Virus record (IMG/VR): IMGVR_UViG_3300017971_000250
Location: 20,920-84,919 of that record
DNA: 64,000 nt
Strand: one strand, 5' to 3'
DNA from: a virus
Shown: positions 1 through 21,900 of the stretch, piece after piece
Layout of the letters: each line of letters opens with the position of its first letter
Numbering within the stretch: position 1 is the stretch's first letter
Program-made: the position numbers and the translations under genes
Notes under the pieces: generated by a model
What the model saw: only the letters and a program-made list of their open reading frames with translations
Told to the model about the DNA's origin: nothing
Databases searched by the model: none

Positions 1-3000
1 AGATAATCGCGCCCCGGCTCTCACGGCAGATCGATGCCACTATCGGATGCGTCCCCTTTGCCGCCCGGACGCCGATTCGTTTTCGCTTCCGATAGGTGTC
101 CGAAAGACCGCTGTGCGACACGCCGGGTCGCCCGAGCGCGTTCAGGATAGCGACCTCCTCGAAGCTCTCGAACTTGAGCCCCTCGCAGAGCCGGTGCGCG
201 AGCGGAGTGTCTAGCTGAAAAATCCCCGCGAGGTTGCGCCGCGTGAACCCCACCAGCACCTTCGGATCGTTCAGACTGATCGCAGTCAGGTCGGGCGCTC
301 GCTTGCCTCGCCGCTCGATCGCCTCCAGGGCGTCACGGATCACCTTCAGGTTGTGGAGCCCGAGGATGTCCAGCTTGACGAGCCCGAGCGCCTCGACGCC
401 GTGCATATCGAGCGCCGTGACCGGGACGCGCTCGCCGTTGCTCTCGCGCGACTCCAGGGGGCAAACGTCGACGATCGGCTCGGGGGAGATCACGACGCCC
501 GCAGGATGAACCGTGAGCGCCTTCGTCGAACCCTCCAGCTTCAGCGCCGTCTCGACGACGGGCGGATACTTCTGTGCGAACTTCCTGCAAGCCGCCTCAT
601 TCTCAAACGGCCCCTTGAGCCCGCCCTCGTCTATCTCGGTCTGCGTGATGTACTTCTCCGGGATGAGCGGGATCAATTCCTCGATCTCCCGAATCGGAAC
701 CTGGAAAACGCGCCCGACGTCTTTCAGGCACTGCCGCCCGCGCATCGTCGAGCGCGCCGAGATGCGAGCGAAGTGATCGGCCCCGTAGACCGCCTGCAGA
801 TGCGCCAGCACCTCGTCGCGCTGGTCGCTGGCAAAATCACAGTCGATGTCCGGCAGATCGCTGTTTGAAACAAGAATGCCACCAGCGAAGTATTCATGCT
901 GGCCCTCTACCGAGAGGTCATAGACGGGACCGGAGAGAACGATTCGTCTGATGCTCGTGATCGTCGCTCGCGCCAGCGAGCCCATCGCAGCTTGTTCGCG
1001 CAACTCAGCGAGCAACATTCCTGACTCCTGGTCACGGGGGCGCGGAACATCGCTCCACACCACACACATGCACGATCGATCATCTTGAACCCGGCATATT
1101 TGATGCGTCTGGACGTTTCCACAAGGACATCCGTCAATCCCGCCCCCCTGATACTCCTGACAAAATCGTCCTGATAGAGCACCCGTAGGCGATCGCCAAG
1201 AAGCCGCTTCGCCAAGATCAGCTTGCGTCCATCCTGACCACGCCATCCCTTCAATTCGTAGAAGAGATCCTCCTGTGGGAGATAGAAGTCGGGGCAATAC
1301 GTCGTCCCGTCTGCCAACCGAAACCGCTCCGCCTCGTATCGGTAGTCCATGCCCATCCGGCGCAACAAACGCGCGAAGTCCGCCTCCAGCCCTGAACGCA
1401 CGAAATGGCCCAGGTCGGGACGGTATCCGGCCCGCCCCCGCGAATGCGTTCTTGTTCCTTGCAAAGCCCGCCCACACTTCCGGGAGCACGCCTTCTGCCG
1501 CTTCCCGCCCTTGAATTCCATTCCACAAACACAACACTGTCGATGGTGACTCCGAACAACCGCAAGGTAACGACATCGCTCGCTGCAATAGATTTGATTC
1601 CCAGTCCTGCGACGAAATACTCGGTCGCACCAAGGACATTCCGTTTCGCTCCCCACCTTCACCCACACGGGAGGACGGCTGCGTTTCGCCGGAGGAATCA
1701 TCATCGAACGGGTATGGCATCTCCGACTGCAATACTTTCTCTTCTGCGACGGATAGGCCCTGATTGCCATCCCGCAAACAGGACAGTAGCTCGTCACCAA
1801 CTTCGAGCTTACAGGCCGCCGCCTTCTCGTACCCTTCTTTGCGCCTGCCTCGCCTGAAGATTCTGTGCCCATAAGTACAGCGTACTAGAAAAGGCTTTCC
1901 GTCGCTAGTCGTTCCTTCGATTTTCACCCCCGGCTCTTTGCCCCACCGCGCATGGCGTGCCAGAACCCGCCGCAAGCCCATCCGCGTCCAAACCATCATC
2001 CCCGGCCGGACGTCATGGATCGGAAGTGCCCCCACAGAAGTCGACACCAGCGTCTCCCCGGGAAAACACCGCCCGGGAGCGAGGAAGCGCTCGAACATGA
2101 GCCCGTGCCGGATCGGATCGATCTGCGTGATCCCGAGCAGGTAGGCGACCAGGCTGCCACCAACCGAACCGCGCCCCGGCCCGACCATGATCCCTTCCTG
2201 CTTCGCCCAGTCGTAAAGCTCTTTGACCGCGAGGAAGTAGTCGACGACGCCACGCTCTTCGATTGTCGCTAGCTCGTGATTGAGACGGGTCTCGTATTTG
2301 TCGTCCGCCCCATGAAGCAATCCACCGTTCGAGAGATACGCCAGCGCCAACAGGCAGCTTTCCTGTAGATAATCGGCGTGCGTATGGCCGACCAAGACCT
2401 TGATCGGCGGCACGACGGGATCCCGGCGCGGTAGCTCGCTCAGCGCCGCGCACCGTTCGGAGACCTCCCTCGTGCGCAGGACAGCCCCGTCCGTAAAGGT
2501 CGCCCGCAGCCGGGGATGATTCGCCCTGAACGCCCGGACCATTTCGTCCTGGCTTCGCAGATGATACTCGCGCGTCTTGAGCCGGAACCTGGTCGGGCTC
2601 AGTAGGACGCCATGGGTATGAATCGCAAGCAGCGCTTCCTGGTAACGCCAGTCGTCCGCGTCAGGATAATGCGCGTCCTGTGTGGCGACCGCAGGAATGC
2701 CGAGCGCCTCGCCGATCTCGTAGAGCGCCTCGTTGGCGACCCGTAACTCGTCCAGGTCGTGCGGCATGATTTCCAGATAGAAGCGGTCGCCGAGCCGCTC
2801 CTGGAATTCCTCCGCGAGCGCGATCGCGTCCGAAGTCCGTCCCTGGTTCACCGCCAGCGAAACCGGCCCGACCATGCAACCGCTCAGAACGATCAGGCCC
2901 TCGGAGTGTTTCCAGAACGTCGGCAGGTCCACGCACGGCCGCCAGTGAAATCCCTCCAGCCAGGCGATCGAAGTTAGCCGGTAGAGATTGCGGAGCCCGG

Positions 3001-3355
3001 TTTCGTTCATGGCCAGGAGCGTCAGGTGCTGTCTGGTGAGTCCGCGCCGCTCCTCTTCAGCCTTCAGGATTTCGCGCCGCCTCCGGTACGGGGTCCCTTT
3101 GGTGATCTCTTTGATCTCTTCCTTCGAGAACCCGCGCCACGCCATGTCCTCGATCACATAAAGCTCGACGCCGAAGATCGGCCGGATGCCGAGACGCTGC
3201 GCCGCCTTGTCGAAGTCGTGAATCCCGCGCAGCGTGCCGTGCTCCGTAGTCGCGATCGCGTCGTGACGCATTTCGAGCGCCCGCTTGATGAACGCGGCAG
3301 GCTTCCTGAAACCGTCGAATCCCGTGTGATCGGTGTGAACGTGAAGATGAATCAT
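1..3355 (-). CDS. dnaE: DNA polymerase III alpha subunit (C-family, DnaE), intein-containing, partial at window edge
   Basis: Replicative-type C-family DNA polymerase. The ATG at 3355 opens with HLHVHTDHTG, an N-terminal PHP domain motif. The frame then shows the conserved active-site region GPGRGSVGGSLVAYLLGIT followed by FERFLAPGR. After a 402-codon intein (2068 down to 863) it resumes as SDLPDIDCDF, the catalytic two-aspartate motif. Extein spacing matches ordinary DnaE (FERFLNPER-xxx-PDxDxDF), which fixes both splice junctions. The frame is open from 3355 to base 1 (1118 codons) and the C-terminus lies outside the window. The ATG overlaps the stop of the upstream gene (ATGA), which suggests translational coupling. 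It is the last gene seen of the leftward replication unit that begins at the 11.5 kb promoter. The mature polymerase needs protein splicing to restore its active site. Confidence 0.93.
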   Translation of the reverse strand, partial: MIHLHVHTDHTGFDGFRKPAAFIKRALEMRHDAIATTEHGTLRGIHDFDKAAQRLGIRPIFGVELYVIEDMAWRGFSKEEIKEITKGTPYRRRREILKAEEERRGLTRQHLTLLAMNETGLRNLYRLTSIAWLEGFHWRPCVDLPTFWKHSEGLIVLSGCMVGPVSLAVNQGRTSDAIALAEEFQERLGDRFYLEIMPHDLDELRVANEALYEIGEALGIPAVATQDAHYPDADDWRYQEALLAIHTHGVLLSPTRFRLKTREYHLRSQDEMVRAFRANHPRLRATFTDGAVLRTREVSERCAALSELPRRDPVVPPIKVLVGHTHADYLQESCLLALAYLSNGGLLHGADDKYETRLNHELATIEERGVVDYFLAVKELYDWAKQEGIMVGPGRGSVGGSLVAYLLGITQIDPIRHGLMFERFLAPGRCFPGETLVSTSVGALPIHDVRPGMMVWTRMGLRRVLARHARWGKEPGVKIEGTTSDGKPFLVRCTYGHRIFRRGRRKEGYEKAAACKLEVGDELLSCLRDGNQGLSVAEEKVLQSEMPYPFDDDSSGETQPSSRVGEGGERNGMSLVRPSISSQDWESNLLQRAMSLPCGCSESPSTVLCLWNGIQGREAAEGVLPEVWAGFARNKNAFAGAGRIPSRPGPFRAFRAGGGLRAFVAPDGHGLPIRGGAVSVGRRDDVLPRLLSPTGGSLLRIEGMAWSGWTQADLGEAASWRSPTGALSGRFCQEYQGGGIDGCPCGNVQTHQICRVQDDRSCMCVVWSDVPRPRDQESGMLLAELREQAAMGSLARATITSIRRIVLSGPVYDLSVEGQHEYFAGGILVSNSDLPDIDCDFASDQRDEVLAHLQAVYGADHFARISARSTMRGRQCLKDVGRVFQVPIREIEELIPLIPEKYITQTEIDEGGLKGPFENEAACRKFAQKYPPVVETALKLEGSTKALTVHPAGVVISPEPIVDVCPLESRESNGERVPVTALDMHGVEALGLVKLDILGLHNLKVIRDALEAIERRGKRAPDLTAISLNDPKVLVGFTRRNLAGIFQLDTPLAHRLCEGLKFESFEEVAILNALGRPGVSHSGLSDTYRKRKRIGVRAAKGTHPIVASICRESRGAII
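863..2068 (-). other. Intein in DnaE (402 residues), inserted just before the PDIDCDF catalytic motif
   Basis: The intein starts with Cys (CFPGETLVSTSVGALPIHDV, block A) after the extein FERFLAPGR. It has a block-B-like VRCTYGHRIF and a KLEVGDELL segment, and ends with block F/G VYDLSVEGQHEYFAGGILVSN before Ser+1 of SDLPDIDCDF. Terminal Cys, terminal Asn and Ser+1 are the residues expected for splicing. The penultimate residue is Ser rather than the common His. The reading frame stays open throughout. The 260 or so residues between the GD segment and block F have no recognisable endonuclease in this frame; they are overprinted by a real endonuclease gene in the +1 frame (907-1872). Splicing is inferred from motifs and from exact restoration of the DnaE alignment. 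Confidence 0.88.
907..1872 (-). CDS. Zinc-finger PD-(D/E)XK homing endonuclease encoded out of frame inside the DnaE intein
   Basis: A 321-residue protein with four zinc-ribbon-like modules: C30-x2-C33/C48-x3-C52, C79-x2-C82/C96-x3-C100, C114-x-C116/C129-x3-C133, and C269-x2-C272 with a second Cys cluster near 287-292. Between the third and fourth lies a PD-(D/E)XK core: E163 in SGLEADF, D195 in YCPDFYL, and E206-x-K208 in YELKG. This resembles phage and intron-associated Vsr/EDxHD-like or PD-D/EXK homing enzymes. It is read one base downstream of the polymerase-intein frame. The ATG lies inside intein block B and the TAG inside block F; an in-frame TAG four codons upstream of the ATG fixes the start. 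There is no strong Shine-Dalgarno; a GGAAAG about 24 bases upstream is the nearest purine run. Expression could depend on internal initiation within dnaE mRNA. Likely role: cutting intein-free dnaE alleles. Activity is inferred. Confidence 0.85.
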   Translation of the reverse strand: MGTESSGEAGAKKGTRRRRPVSSKLVTSYCPVCGMAIRAYPSQKRKYCSRRCHTRSMMIPPAKRSRPPVWVKVGSETECPWCDRVFRRRTGNQIYCSERCRYLAVVRSHHRQCCVCGMEFKGGKRQKACSRKCGRALQGTRTHSRGRAGYRPDLGHFVRSGLEADFARLLRRMGMDYRYEAERFRLADGTTYCPDFYLPQEDLFYELKGWRGQDGRKLILAKRLLGDRLRVLYQDDFVRSIRGAGLTDVLVETSRRIKYAGFKMIDRACVWCGAMFRAPVTRSQECCSLSCANKLRWARWRERRSRASDESFSPVPSMTSR

Positions 3356-3879
3356 GGCGTCTGTGTTCCTATGTGACCGAGAGGCACCACGCGCATCTTG
3401 AGCTTGCCGCTCGGAGATCGCGGGGCGGTGTGGTTCAACCACGCCTCGACGATATCGCGTAGCTCGGCGGGAAAGGTCTCGGTCAGCATCCACTCCAGAT
3501 AGCCGCGCCCTTCCTGTGGATCACTCGCTAGCTCTGAAACGCTGTGCCCCGCATGGCGACCGAATTGGAGAATCGCATCAGTCGGCACACCCCCGAGCGT
3601 CGACGGCACAATCGCATAGTTTGCCCGGGGACGCTGCTTCCCGCGCGATCCGGGAACCTTACTCTCTCTCATCGCTGAAAGGTCCACGGCGCGATTCGGT
3701 GTCTTCACAACCCGGTCACCTTCCTGCCCGCCCATCCCCTCGATCAGATCCTTGAGTTGGGCTTCCGAATCCTTCTCGTCCGCCGTTGCTCCTGGAACCG
3801 CGTCGTCGCCGCCTTCGTCCTTCTTCTTGGGGAGGAACTTGCGGCGCATCTCGTCGAGTGATTTGCCTTCAGCGCTCAT
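3352..3879 (-). CDS. Small protein with DUF3820/ExoX-C-like domain
   Basis: A 175-residue protein starting at ATG 3879, chosen because AGGAGG lies 9 bases upstream; the longer upstream frame overlaps the preceding gene. The C-terminal half carries LQFGRHAGHSVSEL, then DPQEGRGYLEWMLTETFP, the pattern (F-G-K/R-H-x-G then D-P-x-Y-L-x-W) of DUF3820, also seen as the C-terminal domain of exonuclease X-like proteins and in many phage proteins. The N-terminus (KSLDEMRRKFLPKKK) is almost the same as that of the next protein upstream. The stop overlaps the dnaE start (ATGA), suggesting co-production with the polymerase. An accessory role in replication or repair is an inference from domain and position. 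Confidence 0.75.
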   Translation of the reverse strand: MSAEGKSLDEMRRKFLPKKKDEGGDDAVPGATADEKDSEAQLKDLIEGMGGQEGDRVVKTPNRAVDLSAMRESKVPGSRGKQRPRANYAIVPSTLGGVPTDAILQFGRHAGHSVSELASDPQEGRGYLEWMLTETFPAELRDIVEAWLNHTAPRSPSGKLKMRVVPLGHIGTQTP

Positions 3880-3880
3880 C

Positions 3881-4702
3881 TCACCAAGCCCTCCTGATTG
3901 CTTTCCCGACGCCCGCGAGCCACTTCCACTGCTTGACCGTTGCGACGTCCAATTCCGATGCCGGGGGCGGGGCCTCGGATGGGAGTCCTTTGATCTTGGC
4001 GGCATCGACCTTGAGCGGGGGGAGGTTATTGAAGGCACCAGCGTGCAGCGCGCCCTGAAGTGCGCGGGCGGCCTTTCCCCGTAAATGCTTCTCAAAACTA
4101 TCCTTCTCTCCCTGCGCGACCCATCGGTCCTCGATCGCCTTCTCCGCCAGCATCGCAGACGCGACGCCGATCAGGTATTCGAAGAGGCCCTCCAACGTAC
4201 CGGCCGCCGCCCCCACGAGCGAAGACTCGTCGATCTTGATGAAGCCCGCGAGGTCCGGCTTGCCGCGTCCGCTGAGCCCAAACCGAAACGAATAACAATC
4301 CTCCATCGGGATCCGCTCGACCTGGACCGTCATGTTCATCGCGTGGCCGGGACCGCCGTCCCATTGATTCCTCGTCTTCGGGAACATCCCCTCGACTGAC
4401 GTGCCGATCTGGCCCGCCGCACTGGCGACCGCCTTGATCGCTTCGGCAGCCTGCTGGACCGTCGCTCCCGACTGAGCAGCCAACTGTGCCGCTTGCCGCA
4501 CACGCTCTTCTAGCTTCTGCCGCTTCCTCTCCTCCGCGCGCGCCGAACGTAGCTCTCTCGCCTTCGCGCGTTCCTCGCGCAGCTTGCGGCCCTGCTCCTC
4601 GCGCACCTTGCGCGCGGCTTCCTCGGCGACCTTCTCGGCAGCGATCTCCTCCTCCGTCTTCGGGAGGAACTGTCGCCGCATTTCCTCGATCGTCTTTCCC
4701 AT
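3881..4702 (-). CDS. Unknown coiled-coil protein with shared EMRRQFLPK N-terminus
   Basis: Not recognised. A 273-residue protein starting at ATG 4702, which overlaps the previous stop as TGATG and has GAGGAG just upstream; a GTG one codon earlier is the alternative. The N-terminus (KTIEEMRRQFLPKTEEE) matches that of the 3352-3879 product. Residues 15-80 are very rich in Glu, Arg, Lys and Ala and look like a long charged helix or coiled coil. The C-terminal half is globular-looking, with CYSFRFGLSGRGKPDLAGF and a hydrophobic helix near LFEYLIGVASAMLA. It is co-transcribed with the polymerase unit and overlaps its neighbours, so a replication-associated role is plausible but unproven. Confidence 0.7.
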   Translation of the reverse strand: MGKTIEEMRRQFLPKTEEEIAAEKVAEEAARKVREEQGRKLREERAKARELRSARAEERKRQKLEERVRQAAQLAAQSGATVQQAAEAIKAVASAAGQIGTSVEGMFPKTRNQWDGGPGHAMNMTVQVERIPMEDCYSFRFGLSGRGKPDLAGFIKIDESSLVGAAAGTLEGLFEYLIGVASAMLAEKAIEDRWVAQGEKDSFEKHLRGKAARALQGALHAGAFNNLPPLKVDAAKIKGLPSEAPPPASELDVATVKQWKWLAGVGKAIRRAW

Positions 4703-6120
4703 CACTCCTCGGGGAGACCGATATGCAAGTCGAGCGCCGCGCCCGCGATCCGCTCCGTGACAAACTTGACCGCGTCGCGGTCGACCATCTGGAGGATGCT
4801 TCTGAACGCGCCGTGCTTGCGGGGCTTCACGAACTGCTCCAGCTTGCCCTTGTAGACCACGTGGTCAGGACCGAAGGGCAACTGGACGTGTATCGCTCCC
4901 AGGTTCCGCTTCGGCCAGAGCCGGATGAACGAGACCTCTTTCCCGTCGACGACGCGGTAGCCGGTCAAGAACCCGCCCTTCTCCGCTACCGTCAGGAAGC
5001 ACTCGCCCTCGTTCGGCTGATCGGGATCGTCGGCGGGGAGAATCCCTAGCTCCTCCAGCAGCGCGACCCAAAAGTCCTCGGCTAGCGTCTGGACCTCCTC
5101 GGCCGTGATCTGCGTCTTCGGCGGGGGAGGAGGCTCGCGCTTGGCCTTGAGAGCCGTTTTCGCGGGCTCTCCCGGCCCCGGGACCGCCTTCCGGTCCAAC
5201 CGGCCGCCCGGCTTCCCCTTCACCGGCCTCGGGGGCTCCTGCGGCTTCGCCGGTTCCCCGGCCCCCGGAGGCCCCTCCACCATGCCCGCAGGCGCGTGCG
5301 CCTCGGCCCCCTTCCCGGCCGACGCCTTCAGGCTCGGCGGGGGCTCGTAGGGACCGAACCGATCCAGTAGCTCCCCGGTCAGCTTCACGATCGCCGCGTG
5401 GTCGAGCGGGGTGCCGTCGGGCTTGCTCGTCGCCTCCTCGATCGGCTTCCCCTGCGTCCGGCAGAAATCCTGGAGCGCCATGCAGCGCTCGCGCCAGGTG
5501 CAAGGCGGATCCAGCTTCCCGCGCTTCGGATCATAGGAGCCGTCACAGACCCGCTCCTCGACGTGATACCCGACGCACCCAGGATGCGCAGGCTGCGCCT
5601 TTACCTTCGGCTTCGGAGCCGTAACCGACTTCGCACCCGGGGTGCCCGGCCCGGGGACGCCTTCCTCTTCGACCGGCTCCTCCTCGACGATGTCGTCGTC
5701 ATAGTCGTCGGCTTCGATTTCCTCCAGGTCGTCCTCCTCCATCGCCTCGACCGCCTCTTCGAATTTCATCAGGTCGGGATCGTCGTGCTCGCCGCGTTCG
5801 GCAGCCGCCGTCGCCGCGAGCTTCCTGTACCACGCGACCGCGTCGCTGAGGCTGCCAGAATCGGCACCACTGATTTCGCCCGTATCGATGTCGAGATCCC
5901 CGACCGCAACGACCGTCGCGTGCTGCCCGGCCTTCTTGTTCGACAGAAACAGGACGTGCCCCCACGGATACATTTCGATCTTGCGCGTCCAATCTTCGGT
6001 CTCAAAGCTCGCCATGGGCTCCTGCGCGAAGCCGTCAACCGGACGCGGATCCAGCTTGTGCTGCCGCATCACCTTCGAGACGAATGCCGTGTCCCAAAAC
6101 TTCCCACTGACTTCAATCAT
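4702..6120 (-). CDS. Unknown modular protein with acidic and Pro-rich linkers and a Cys cluster
   Basis: Not recognised. 472 residues, ATG 6120 preceded by AGGAGGAACCG. Residues 1-100 form a compact N-terminal domain (FWDTAFVSKVMRQH, YPWGHVLFLSNKK). A strongly acidic stretch follows (about 120-155), then a Cys motif around 180-222 (HPGCVGYHVEERVC, DPPCTWRERC, DFC) that could bind zinc. A Pro/Gly/Lys-rich linker (265-340) leads to a C-terminal domain (FLTGYRVVDGKEVSFIRLWP). The stop overlaps the start of the 3881-4702 gene by one base, and the start overlaps the upstream gene by eight bases. Position in the replication unit is the only functional hint. Confidence 0.7.
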   Translation of the reverse strand: MIEVSGKFWDTAFVSKVMRQHKLDPRPVDGFAQEPMASFETEDWTRKIEMYPWGHVLFLSNKKAGQHATVVAVGDLDIDTGEISGADSGSLSDAVAWYRKLAATAAAERGEHDDPDLMKFEEAVEAMEEDDLEEIEADDYDDDIVEEEPVEEEGVPGPGTPGAKSVTAPKPKVKAQPAHPGCVGYHVEERVCDGSYDPKRGKLDPPCTWRERCMALQDFCRTQGKPIEEATSKPDGTPLDHAAIVKLTGELLDRFGPYEPPPSLKASAGKGAEAHAPAGMVEGPPGAGEPAKPQEPPRPVKGKPGGRLDRKAVPGPGEPAKTALKAKREPPPPPKTQITAEEVQTLAEDFWVALLEELGILPADDPDQPNEGECFLTVAEKGGFLTGYRVVDGKEVSFIRLWPKRNLGAIHVQLPFGPDHVVYKGKLEQFVKPRKHGAFRSILQMVDRDAVKFVTERIAGAALDLHIGLPEE

Positions 6121-18914: not shown

Positions 18915-21900
18915 TTATGGGACGATCGCGTTCAGCGTAGCGTCGCCGATCGACCCGGTTCCAGAAACGCTCAACGACCCGTCGAGTATGTTACCAATGA
19001 CCGTGCAGTATGCGCCGGTCGAGGTGATATCGTTCATGTAGGCACCACCAATGCAGCAGTTGCCGGTGATCGAGCAGTAATTCCCGTCGTTGTAGATCGC
19101 GTCGGTACCGCTCGCCGTTCCGTGGTTTCCCGTGATCGTCGTATTCTGGCACGTGTTGTAGATAAACTTTCCGGCTGCGATGTAGCCGCTGTTTCCCGCA
19201 ATCGTCAGACCGTGATCCGTCGAGTAGTTGGTTTCGATTCCCCTTGTCAGGGTGCCGGTCCCGGTGATGTTGATATAGTTGTCACGAATGAACGCGTGGC
19301 CAGCGGTCAGTCGGATTCCGTATATCGTCTCCCCACTAGATGCGCTGCCGGTAAACTTGCAATCACTGATGTGCGTGTAGGTCGCGCCCGTCACGATGAC
19401 CCCGCCTTGGGTTCCGCCCACACCGGTGACCGACGACTCGCACTTGCTAATATGCACAGTCTCGGCATTTGCGATTTGTGCAAAGATGCGGGCCGTGTTC
19501 GATTCACAATCGCGGATCGTGATAGTAGACGTGCCCCCTTCGATATTGAAGATCGTCGGAGTGACCGAGCCCGTGTTCCAGTAGAAGCGACAGTCCTCAA
19601 CTAGGAGCCGGTGGAATTGGTAGGAAGCAGTGTCGGACCGGAAAACGGTCACGCCCGCAGGGTCCGTCATGCAATTAGAGAAGCGGCAATCGCTCACACG
19701 CAGGTTGTAGATCGATCCGCCGTAGGCTCCAACGAAGGTGCGCCACGGATAATCGTTGTAGCGATTCAGAATCCGACAGTGAAGAAACGCGATGTCCCAC
19801 GTTGCCGTTCCAACATAGAAGAGGTTGCTGTTCACATACGATCCCGTGTGCTCGTAGACAAACGTCAGGTCGCGGAAGGTGATGTTGGTGACGGACGGAG
19901 AGCCCTGCGTTCTGAAAAGCCAGCTCGGCGTGCCCGTCCCTTCCCAAATAATCGCGGCGGTGCCGAAGTCCGATTCGGTCCCGTATCCCCACCAGGCCGA
20001 CTCGTCGGCGTGGCCAACACCCCGGATCGTCAATCCCGAGTGCTCGGGCCGGAGGTCGTAGCCGCCGAGGCCGGTGAGGTCCGTCGTACCGACGATCACG
20101 ATTTCAATTTCCGGCCACTCCATTGACGTCAATTGCGCCCGGACGTCGCGCACCCAATTGAGCGCCTCGAATAGGTTAGCGAAGTCGCAAAGCGAATCTG
20201 GATCCGCCGAGGAGCCGACCGTGACGACGTGCCGCCGCCCGACGGTGCCGATGAACGGCCGCCCTGAACGAAGATCGGTCACCGCCGAACTGTCCGTAAC
20301 CGCCGCCCCCAGGACGAGCGTATCTCCGGCTGCCGGGTAGGCGGTCGCCTGCGTCGTCGTGGAGGTGATCGTCCCCGCGTTGGTGATGTAGATGTAGTTG
20401 GTCTGGTTCGTTGCGAGCGTAAGCTCCGTCGTGCCCGAATAGGTGTACCGTACCCCGTTCACAATCGCCGAGCCCGTGTTGACCGTGACCTTCGGGGGGC
20501 TGCTGCCAGTGATCGAAAGCGCGAGGTCGTTTAGATTTTCCTGGACGCCCGATACCCGAAGCCCCGCAGACGCGGTGCGGATTTCATCGATCGCCCCGAG
20601 CAACGACTGCGCGCCGGTATTGAGCTGCGTCCCTCCGGTTTCACTGTTGCTGCTTAGCGGGATCCCCGCGCTCGGAGTGATGTACTGATCGTCGAGATAG
20701 AGCGGACCGGCTCCAGTGTCACCACGGAGCTTTGCTGGAGAGCCGCGCATGAGGATTTCGCCGTCCTCGATGCGGAGACCGCCACGCCCCACTCCGGTGT
20801 TCCGAATCCAGAAGTAGCGTTCACTTGGGTCGGAAATCTGCGCGACCAGGTAACGCAACGTGTTGTCGTAGTACATCTCCCAATAGCCACTGTTCCCGTA
20901 GAAAAATAGTGGTGGCGAACTCCCCGAAGGATTGATTCCGAGGAAAATCGGTCCGTCGGTCTTGATCCCAAAGACGCCACCGCCGCCATCGTTGCGCACT
21001 TCGAGATAGCTCTCTCCGCCGACCGCGTCGTTGCGGCGGATCGTGATACCGCTGCTCTCCGCATAGATTTCACGGTCAATGCTACTTGCCGCAAAGATGA
21101 TTTTACCGCCCGGGTCGGCCTCGTCGTCGTCGCCGATGTAGAGGTTCGACCAGCGATCGTAGGGGGCCGAGTCGGTTTTCTCCCCCGCATGAAGCCGTAG
21201 CTGCGACCAAAGCTCCATCGTATCGGTGCTCGGGTCGTCGCCGACCTCCGTGCTCCCGAGCACGATTTCGACGTCGGTGATTGTCTCCGAGCCGCCAACG
21301 ACTAGGTCGCCGCTCATCGTGACGTCGCCGTCCTTGTCAACTTTGAAGACCGGCGTTCCCCCGGTATCGAGCACGCTGATCTGACGCTGGTCCGCCGCCT
21401 CCCCCGCGTAGACCTGGACCGCGACCTTGGCGTGTGCGTTGACCGGGTCGTACTCGATGAAGTCCTGCGCGAAGATGGCCAGGTCGCCGTGGAGGTTCTG
21501 GAGCGACAAATCGATCGAGGAGATTGTATTGCCGCTGGCCGCCGCCGTGACCTCGGCGAGGTACACGACTCCCGCGACCCCAGTAAGGTCCTGGACCGCC
21601 TTGCGTTTGATCTTCGGGCCGATCAGCAGCACCCGGTAGTCGGCAGCCGTCGTTGACGGGGAGTCCTGGCCTAGATGCGCCGTCGTGAGGATCGAGTTGT
21701 TCGGGTTGCTGTAAGTGACCGCAACCTCCTCGAAGGCCACGTCAGCGTCCTGGCTCTGCGGCCCCGGGCCGCCGTCCTGGACCGACTTCAACCAGACCCG
21801 CACCGTGCGTCCGGAGTGATCGTAGCCTGACTCCAGGAGCGAATTGACCGTCACCCGGAGGCCGCCGCCTTCGACCGCGACCGAATCCGGGGTGCCGAGC

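What the first reader, a model, noticed from the sequence alone, without database searches (positions are those of the whole stretch)
863..2068. A homing endonuclease gene overprinted in the +1 frame of a complete intein in DnaE
The polymerase-intein frame is open without a stop from 3355 to 1, and intein blocks A, B, F and G are all in that frame. The endonuclease (907-1872, four zinc modules, E163/D195/E206-x-K208) is encoded one base out of phase on the same strand. It starts inside block B and stops inside block F. At both ends the intein frame carries the conserved motifs and the endonuclease sequence is bland; in the middle the reverse holds. Usually an intein endonuclease is fused in frame, or lies free between the halves of a split intein. 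Keeping about 320 codons free of stops in both frames argues for selection on both. Splicing and homing would then be separately translated functions. This is the strongest candidate for an undescribed arrangement here.
Basis: partly seen in the sequence, partly recalled or inferred. Interest (0 to 1): 0.92.

Follow-up and report, generated by a model that had tools for sequence, protein, structure and literature searches.

The report
Intein with out-of-frame homing endonuclease
A phage DNA polymerase gene carries a self-splicing insert whose own mobility enzyme is written over it in a different reading frame, and the same layout recurs in many other phage genes, so it looks like a common but overlooked way for such elements to spread.

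Summary
In a viral contig, dnaE (minus strand) contains a 402-aa intein (2068-863). A 321-codon endonuclease ORF (1872-907) lies inside it, shifted by one base. The intein frame has no stop across that ORF against 13.4 expected (0 of 20,000 shuffles); the endonuclease frame has none against 4.9: double coding, not indel errors. The model folds intein residues 1-100 and ~361-402 into a Hint domain and leaves the overlapped middle disordered; the endonuclease keeps E163/D195/E206/K208.

It is not unique. Of the 80 viral loci most like HNH endonucleases of four terminase inteins, 72 are overprinted (two repeat query phages), 71 in the other relative frame, with Shine-Dalgarno-like starts enriched. 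A DUF559-type case sits in a helicase intein (L210). Three nuclease types suggest several origins.

It is not wholly undescribed: a 2015 brucellaphage paper mentions an intein-encoded HNH gene out of frame in terL (PMC4422536); ShiLan elements (PMC11855218) are out-of-frame HNH insertions without an intein. Verdict: new variant of a known but little-recognised kind. How this endonuclease is translated is unresolved: no Shine-Dalgarno at its ATG.

The parts
1..3355 (-). dnaE (DNA polymerase III alpha); continues beyond the window to contig 19078
   Evidence: PHP, DNA_pol3_alpha and DNA_pol3_finger in Pfam; open frame
2069..3355 (-). N-extein of DnaE
   Evidence: aligns to uninterrupted phage DnaE up to the junction
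863..2068 (-). intein, 402 aa, Cys1 to Asn402, Ser+1
   Evidence: C1, T65, H68, N402 invariant in an alignment of 32 inteins, the window's among them; TIGR01443 intein C-terminus 18.2 bits against cut-off 15.6; Hint fold
1769..2068 (-). N-terminal half of the Hint splicing domain (intein residues 1-100; blocks A and B)
   Evidence: block means of pLDDT 77-96
986..1768 (-). intein residues 101-361: stop-free, predicted disordered linker, for the most part the out-of-phase reading of the endonuclease gene
   Evidence: pLDDT mostly below 50; 0 stops against 13.4 expected across the endonuclease ORF
863..985 (-). C-terminal half of the Hint domain (blocks F and G)
   Evidence: block means of pLDDT 92-96 from about residue 371
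907..1872 (-). endonuclease ORF, 321 codons, shifted +1 against the intein; starts in block B, stops in block F
   Evidence: PHROG 1271 (HNH endonuclease; zinc part) E 2.8e-21 and PHROG 9019 (Holliday junction resolvase) E 3.8e-12
1795..1800 (-). alternative start codons TTG (from 1800) and GTG (from 1797), just before the first zinc module
   Evidence: inference from position; Shine-Dalgarno energies -1.7 and -0.6, weak
1717..1785 (-). zinc module 1 (C30-C33-C48-C52)
   Evidence: sequence
1573..1638 (-). zinc module 2 (C79-C82-C96-C100)
   Evidence: sequence
1474..1536 (-). zinc module 3 (C113 or C114, C116, C129, C133)
   Evidence: sequence
1228..1410 (-). PD-(D/E)XK nuclease core, E163, D195, E206-x-K208
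   Evidence: invariant in an alignment of 17 sequences; block means of pLDDT 83-97 over residues 151-240
1000..1068 (-). zinc module 4 (C269, C272, C286 or C287, C291)
   Evidence: sequence
1..862 (-). C-extein of DnaE (SDLPDIDCDF...)

Best explanation
This is a mobile intein in phage dnaE whose homing endonuclease is encoded as an overlapping gene in the +1 frame. Shown by sequence and models: the host frame gives exteins plus a Hint splicing domain made of the first ~100 and last ~40 intein residues, joined by about 260 residues, predicted disordered, that are mostly the out-of-phase reading of the endonuclease gene and are kept free of stops; the endonuclease frame gives a zinc-module PD-(D/E)XK nuclease with its catalytic residues in place. 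Inferred: the intein splices in cis to give active DnaE; a second initiation event on the same mRNA, inside the intein, makes the free endonuclease, which cuts empty dnaE alleles near the PDIDxDF motif so that repair copies the whole intein in. Inferred origin: a free-standing zinc/PD-(D/E)XK nuclease entered an intein out of phase, and stops in the host phase were excluded afterwards.
For: Stop avoidance in both frames. Hint fold with disordered middle; best PDB match the gp41-1 intein, E 1.8e-5. Catalytic residues invariant. The 15 DnaE loci of my scans that can be read across the site lack an insert there (4 of 4, 11 of 12). In the HNH comparison class: 72 of 80 overprinted; 0 stops in the host phase against 130 expected over 65 loci, while the third phase shows 1170 against 1217; Shine-Dalgarno energy at the endonuclease start at or below -6 in 37% of 59 against 6% of 945 other-frame ATGs, p 1.6e-8; third-position excess of substitutions in the endonuclease frame. 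Control: of 80 viral loci with PD-(D/E)XK relatives, 0 are covered by another open phase and 0 lie in an ORF over 450 codons. A related nuclease is fused in frame in a Miltoncostaea dnaE intein.
Against: No Shine-Dalgarno at ATG 1872 (+0.7 kcal) or at the TTG/GTG starts (-1.7, -0.6), although this phage's crudely called genes tend to have one; no promoter-like site in 1700-2400. No close relative of this locus was found, so no substitution test was possible on it, and none of the PD-(D/E)XK relatives seen is overprinted. Splicing, expression and cleavage were not measured. The intein scores below Pfam's cut-offs (Intein_splicing 15.4 against 35.8 bits, Hint_2 14.8 against 28.4), and its penultimate residue is Ser, not His. 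The endonuclease model has no PDB fold match at E <= 0.001.
Confidence: 0.8

Rival explanations
1. The endonuclease is made by programmed +1 (or -2) ribosomal frameshifting from the dnaE frame, as an N-extein/N-intein/endonuclease fusion, not by internal initiation. This differs from the best explanation only in the translation step.
For: No Shine-Dalgarno at the window's start codons; the endonuclease frame is open for a few codons upstream of the ATG (open frame of 325 against 321).
Against: The overprinted class occurs in both relative phases (71 of 72 in one, L112 in the other, the window and L210 in the same phase as L112), which one frameshift type would not serve; in the HNH class 44 of 65 loci have an ATG at the start, against 20% of 325 deeper windows, with Shine-Dalgarno enrichment. 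No search for slippery sequences was made.
Confidence: 0.18
2. The endonuclease is a decaying, no longer translated remnant inside an intein that survives by splicing alone.
For: No recognised translation start; disordered middle in the intein frame.
Against: 321 codons without a stop where 4.9 stops are expected, all four catalytic residues and four zinc modules in place.
Confidence: 0.12
3. Sequencing or assembly artefact: two indels displaced an endonuclease that is really fused in frame.
For: An in-frame fusion of a related nuclease exists in Miltoncostaea oceani dnaE.
Against: The displaced phase would then be noise, yet it has 0 stops against 13.4 expected (0 of 20,000); 72 of 80 viral loci and four phage GenBank records show the same kind of layout.
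Confidence: 0.02
4. A split intein whose halves are translated separately with a free endonuclease gene between them.
For: Known split-intein loci place a free endonuclease between the halves (recalled, Dassa 2009; only seen as a reference).
Against: One frame runs through from N-extein to C-extein without a stop, and its openness is under selection.
Confidence: 0.03
5. A group I or II intron carrying an endonuclease ORF.
For: Introns often carry free endonuclease ORFs (general knowledge).
Against: No Rfam match up to E 1 in 600-2400; intein motifs and Hint fold present.
Confidence: 0.01

Closest known systems
Putative intein-encoded HNH endonuclease out of frame in brucellaphage terL (PMC4422536, 2015; passages and reference list read)
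   Same: An intein in an essential phage gene with the endonuclease gene in another phase of the same stretch.
   Different: Terminase and HNH nuclease, treated in one paragraph; here dnaE, a zinc/PD-(D/E)XK nuclease, tests of both frames, and a wider class. The brucellaphage sequence itself was not examined (an accession given from memory was not in the collection).
ShiLan and Pacc40 out-of-frame HNH insertions in phage methylases (PMC11855218, 2025; abstract, passages and two sections read)
   Same: Endonuclease hidden out of frame in an insertion kept open in the host frame.
   Different: That paper finds no intein splicing domain; here a Hint domain is present.
Full inteins with an in-frame endonuclease, for example Miltoncostaea oceani plasmid dnaE (L019)
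   Same: Related zinc/PD-(D/E)XK nuclease (55% identical over 65 residues) inside a dnaE intein.
   Different: Fused in frame, at another insertion site.
Split inteins with a free endonuclease between the halves (recalled; Dassa 2009 seen only in reference lists)
   Same: Endonuclease translated apart from the intein.
   Different: There the gene is broken in two; here the host frame stays contiguous.
Free-standing zinc/PD-(D/E)XK nucleases of viruses and bacteria (L118-L197, L026-L036)
   Same: Same catalytic residues and, in the longer relatives, zinc modules.
   Different: Not inside an intein: 0 of 80 viral loci and 0 of 12 genome loci are overprinted.

Membership tests
Intein (Hint, Cys1) | Cys1/block A, T-x-x-H of block B, terminal Asn and Cys/Ser/Thr +1 | tested here: met
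Intein (Hint, Cys1) | Hint fold | tested here: met
   predicted model, (gp41-1 intein, E 1.8e-5)
Intein (Hint, Cys1) | curated profile score | tested here: inconclusive
   TIGR01443 above its cut-off; Pfam Intein_splicing and Hint_2 below theirs
Intein (Hint, Cys1) | penultimate His | tested here: not met
   Ser in the window; also Ser in 13 of 63 HNH-class inteins, so not treated as a defining feature
Intein (Hint, Cys1) | insertion in a conserved site, absent from homologues | tested here: met
   15 of 15 readable loci uninterrupted; the 1227 phage records were not checked at the junction
Intein (Hint, Cys1) | protein splicing | not testable with these tools
   needs expression
Full intein with in-frame endonuclease | endonuclease in the same frame as the splicing domain | tested here: not met
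Split intein | host gene interrupted between the halves | tested here: not met
   open frame throughout
PD-(D/E)XK homing endonuclease, phage endonuclease I-like | E...D...E-x-K catalytic set | tested here: met
   invariant in an alignment of 17 sequences
PD-(D/E)XK homing endonuclease, phage endonuclease I-like | profile or fold match | tested here: inconclusive
   PHROG 9019 E 3.8e-12, Pfam Phage_endo_I below cut-off, no PDB fold match at E <= 0.001
PD-(D/E)XK homing endonuclease, phage endonuclease I-like | cleavage of the empty site | not testable with these tools
   needs an assay
Out-of-frame intein endonuclease (brucellaphage type) | intein frame open and endonuclease in another phase, same strand | tested here: met
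ShiLan-type element | no splicing domain | tested here: not met
   Hint domain present
Group I/II intron | intron RNA fold | tested here: not met
   no Rfam match

The most novel reading that the evidence does not exclude
Overprinting is a general third way, beside in-frame fusion and split inteins, for inteins to carry a homing endonuclease. It arose more than once, with at least three nuclease families (HNH, PD-(D/E)XK, DUF559) and both relative phases, in terminase, polymerase and helicase genes. It separates the endonuclease from the splicing domain in translation, fold and regulation, at the price of a long disordered linker in the precursor. The window is the only case I saw in dnaE with a PD-(D/E)XK nuclease.
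Probability: 0.65. Interest if true: 0.85.

Novelty: new variant of a known kind. Interest (0 to 1): 0.72.

Why it matters
An endonuclease that lies out of phase is missed when an intein is read in its own frame: the records of L018, L022 and L023 annotate the terminase but not the overlapping endonuclease. If the class is general, some inteins taken for immobile mini-inteins with odd linkers may be mobile. It would also be a natural case of long overlapping genes with a clear asymmetry, one frame conserved as protein and the other mainly kept open. And, if the models are right, the Hint domain tolerates about 260 disordered residues between its halves.

Tried and rejected
Two-indel artefact: rejected by stop avoidance. 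Intron: no Rfam match. Split intein: frame contiguous. In-frame fusion: the endonuclease is in another phase.

Closer relatives of the window's endonuclease: viral-contig scans gave none or 48 stretches and none confirmed. Scans with the C-extein (4 loci) and N-extein (12 loci) gave DnaE without an insert here. The intein's N-part gave 11 stretches and one confirmed locus, L210, in a helicase gene.

So the window's nuclease type is rarely overprinted in what I could see.

The ORF in the second DnaE intein (contig 20727-19657) looked like another overprinted nuclease, but nothing above a cut-off or confirmed matched it in Pfam, PHROGs, PDB, phages, plasmids or viral contigs, and its own frame is not significantly stop-poor (1 against 3.1, 11% of shuffles). 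I do not claim it as a gene.

The stop test on single HNH-class loci is weak (13 of 65 below 1%); the strength is in the sum. The 80 loci are the best of 440 by likeness to an overprinted query, so 72 of 80 is not a population frequency; L038 is query phage TJE1 itself, and L088 looks like a copy of query record MT838676 (same intein N-part). Only 10 host ORFs of the class were tested in Pfam, 7 with a terminase domain. A first pattern for block A failed and was replaced; in that pass two rows (L068 start, L089 end) are misplaced by the pattern, and L046 and L102 were not matched. Several DnaE loci are near copies (L198, L199, L204; L208, L209).

Literature: ten searches in open PMC text only. 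The preprint 10.1101/2025.01.02.630785 on actinobacteriophage inteins with 'non-canonical architecture' is not held (title seen in a reference list); it may describe such cases. Gorbalenya 1998 is not held. PMC5050341, PMC3229294 and PMC7886860 were read in passages only, and the passages shown do not describe the layout.

Full report
What was checked. The window lies at 20920-84919 of an 84,919-base virus record. On the minus strand dnaE is open from 3355 to the window's end and on to a stop at contig position 19078. It holds an intein of 402 residues, Cys1 at 2068 and Asn402 at 863 with Ser+1. Inside it, one base out of phase, lies a 321-codon ORF, 1872-907, that encodes an endonuclease.

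Is it more than chance? I shuffled synonymous codons of the endonuclease and counted stops in the intein frame: 0 observed, 13.4 expected, 0 of 20,000 shuffles reached 0. Stops in that frame can only arise where a codon ending in T precedes one starting AA, AG or GA. None of the 69 codons in that position ends in T; 68 of the other 252 do (Fisher 8.8e-9). The converse test, shuffling the intein frame, gives 0 stops in the endonuclease frame against 4.9 expected (0.2% of 5000), while the third frame is as expected, 12 against 12.0. Two frames are protected and the third is not. Two hidden indels would not be expected to produce that.

What the two frames encode. AlphaFold on an alignment of 32 inteins (the window's first) gives block means of pLDDT from 77 to 96 for residues 1-100 and above 90 from about residue 371 to 402; most of residues 101-361 are below 50. 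The folded part matches solved inteins (gp41-1 E 1.8e-5; 15 chains, Hedgehog domains among them, at E <= 0.001). C1, T65, H68 and N402 are invariant. So the splicing domain looks complete and the overlapped middle is predicted to be a disordered linker. By profile the evidence is mixed: TIGR01443 is above its cut-off, Pfam's Intein_splicing and Hint_2 are below theirs. The endonuclease has four zinc modules and a PD-(D/E)XK core: E163, D195, E206 and K208 are invariant in an alignment of 17 sequences; PHROG 9019 matches at 3.8e-12; Pfam's Phage_endo_I is below its cut-off; the predicted fold has no PDB match at E <= 0.001, though TT1808, AbaSI and T7 endonuclease I are among the top rows.

The site. 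The 15 DnaE loci of my scans that can be read across the junction are uninterrupted there (4 of 4, 11 of 12; L201 ends at the site; several are near copies). The 1227 phage records were not checked. The intein sits just before the conserved PDIDxDF stretch; that this holds catalytic aspartates is recalled, not tested.

Relatives of the nuclease. In Miltoncostaea oceani plasmid dnaE a related zinc/PD-(D/E)XK nuclease (55% identical over 65 residues) is fused in frame in an intein at another site.

A wider class. The window intein's N-part matched, weakly (E 3e-3), a terminase intein of Rhodobacteraceae phage LS06-2018-MD07. Between its halves an HNH and zinc endonuclease is encoded out of phase. 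The same holds for Tetrasphaera phage TJE1, Acinetobacter phage Highwayman and a faecal phage record, MT838676, while vir335 has a short intein without one. The host ORFs of the four have terminase domains and Hint or intein matches in Pfam, the intein model above its cut-off in two of four; HNH_3 is found in the two nucleases tested. A viral-contig scan with the four nucleases gave 440 relatives, of which the best 80 were kept. In 72 of 80 the nuclease match lies at least 95% inside an open frame of another phase; 71 in one phase, L112 in the other. L038 is TJE1 itself and L088 looks like a copy of MT838676, so at least two of the 72 repeat the query. The list is selected for likeness to an overprinted query. 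The covering frames carry intein blocks: 63 of 65 non-redundant ones by pattern, two with a misplaced end. Ten host ORFs tested in Pfam all match Intein_splicing at E < 0.01, four above the cut-off; seven have a terminase domain, one of these (L058) below its cut-off.

How the class behaves. Over 65 non-redundant loci the host phase has 0 stops in the overlap against 130 expected; the third phase has 1170 against 1217. Single loci are rarely decisive (13 of 65 below 1%). In 9 pairs with 70-90% identical endonucleases, 56% of base differences fall in the endonuclease's third positions, and identity is 80% in the endonuclease frame against 61% in the intein frame. So in the overlap the endonuclease is conserved as a protein and the intein frame seems mainly to be kept open. 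Near the beginning of homology 59 of 65 have a start codon, 44 of them ATG, with Shine-Dalgarno energy at or below -6 in 37% of 59, against 6% of 945 other-frame ATGs (p 1.6e-8) and 5% of 94 inner ones (p 1.9e-5). An ATG occurs there in 44 of 65 loci, against 20% of 325 deeper windows and 42% of 130 windows at the same place in other frames. This points to internal initiation in many of them; 63% of the 59 lack a strong Shine-Dalgarno by this measure.

A third nuclease type. L210 has an intein in a ResIII/helicase gene with an overlapping ORF that matches DUF559 above its cut-off (27.5 against 20.6). The intein frame has 0 stops across it against 11.1 expected. Its phase is the window's. Different nuclease families and phases suggest that the layout arose more than once.

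What remains weak. The window's ATG has no Shine-Dalgarno (+0.7) and the alternatives are poor (-1.7, -0.6), although this phage's genes, crudely called, tend to have one (best of three starts at or below -6 in 67% of 40 against 34% of 41 controls). No promoter-like site was found in 1700-2400. Translation of this endonuclease is therefore inferred from its conservation and from the HNH class. No close relative was found for a substitution test at this locus.

Comparison with print. [quoted passage not shown] A 2025 paper describes out-of-frame HNH insertions in phage methylases without a splicing domain (PMC11855218; abstract, passages and two sections). Another announcement mentions an out-of-frame HNH in a methylase (PMC12613952, listing only). 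My ten searches of open PMC text brought up nothing that I recognised on dnaE, on a PD-(D/E)XK nuclease in this layout, or on the breadth of the class; a preprint with 'non-canonical architecture' in its title could not be read. I therefore call this a new variant of a known, little-recognised kind.

Noticed in passing
G000:C1:20698-19646 (L211), outside the window, in the same dnaE: A second, Ser1-type intein (351 aa) in the same polymerase, at FNK|S...SHN|SHATAY, with a long bland middle and an overlapping 357-codon ORF in another phase. By eye the ORF resembles a Vsr-like nuclease, but no library confirmed it and its openness is not significant.
   Followed up: partly
L210:2602-4950: Helicase-gene intein with an overprinted DUF559-type zinc endonuclease in the window's relative phase.
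   Followed up: partly
L018, L022, L023: Deposited phage genomes whose terminase gene is annotated as one long CDS while the overlapping HNH endonuclease is not annotated.
   Followed up: yes
L213 (Acinetobacter phage BP10): A free-standing relative (46% identical to the L049 nuclease) of the overprinted HNH lies directly upstream of the small and large terminase genes.
   Followed up: no
L039, L079, L095, L100, L104, L108, L110, L115: The eight HNH relatives that no other phase covers have only 2-7 stops in the +1 phase, so such nucleases may start out nearly open in that phase.
   Followed up: no
window 3352-4705, minus strand: Two neighbouring ORFs share a similar short motif (DEMRRKFLPK and EEMRRQFLPK), perhaps paralogues.
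   Followed up: no
L005 / G003:C1:48691-49697: A related DnaE has a long in-frame insertion at another place, near query residue 400.
   Followed up: no
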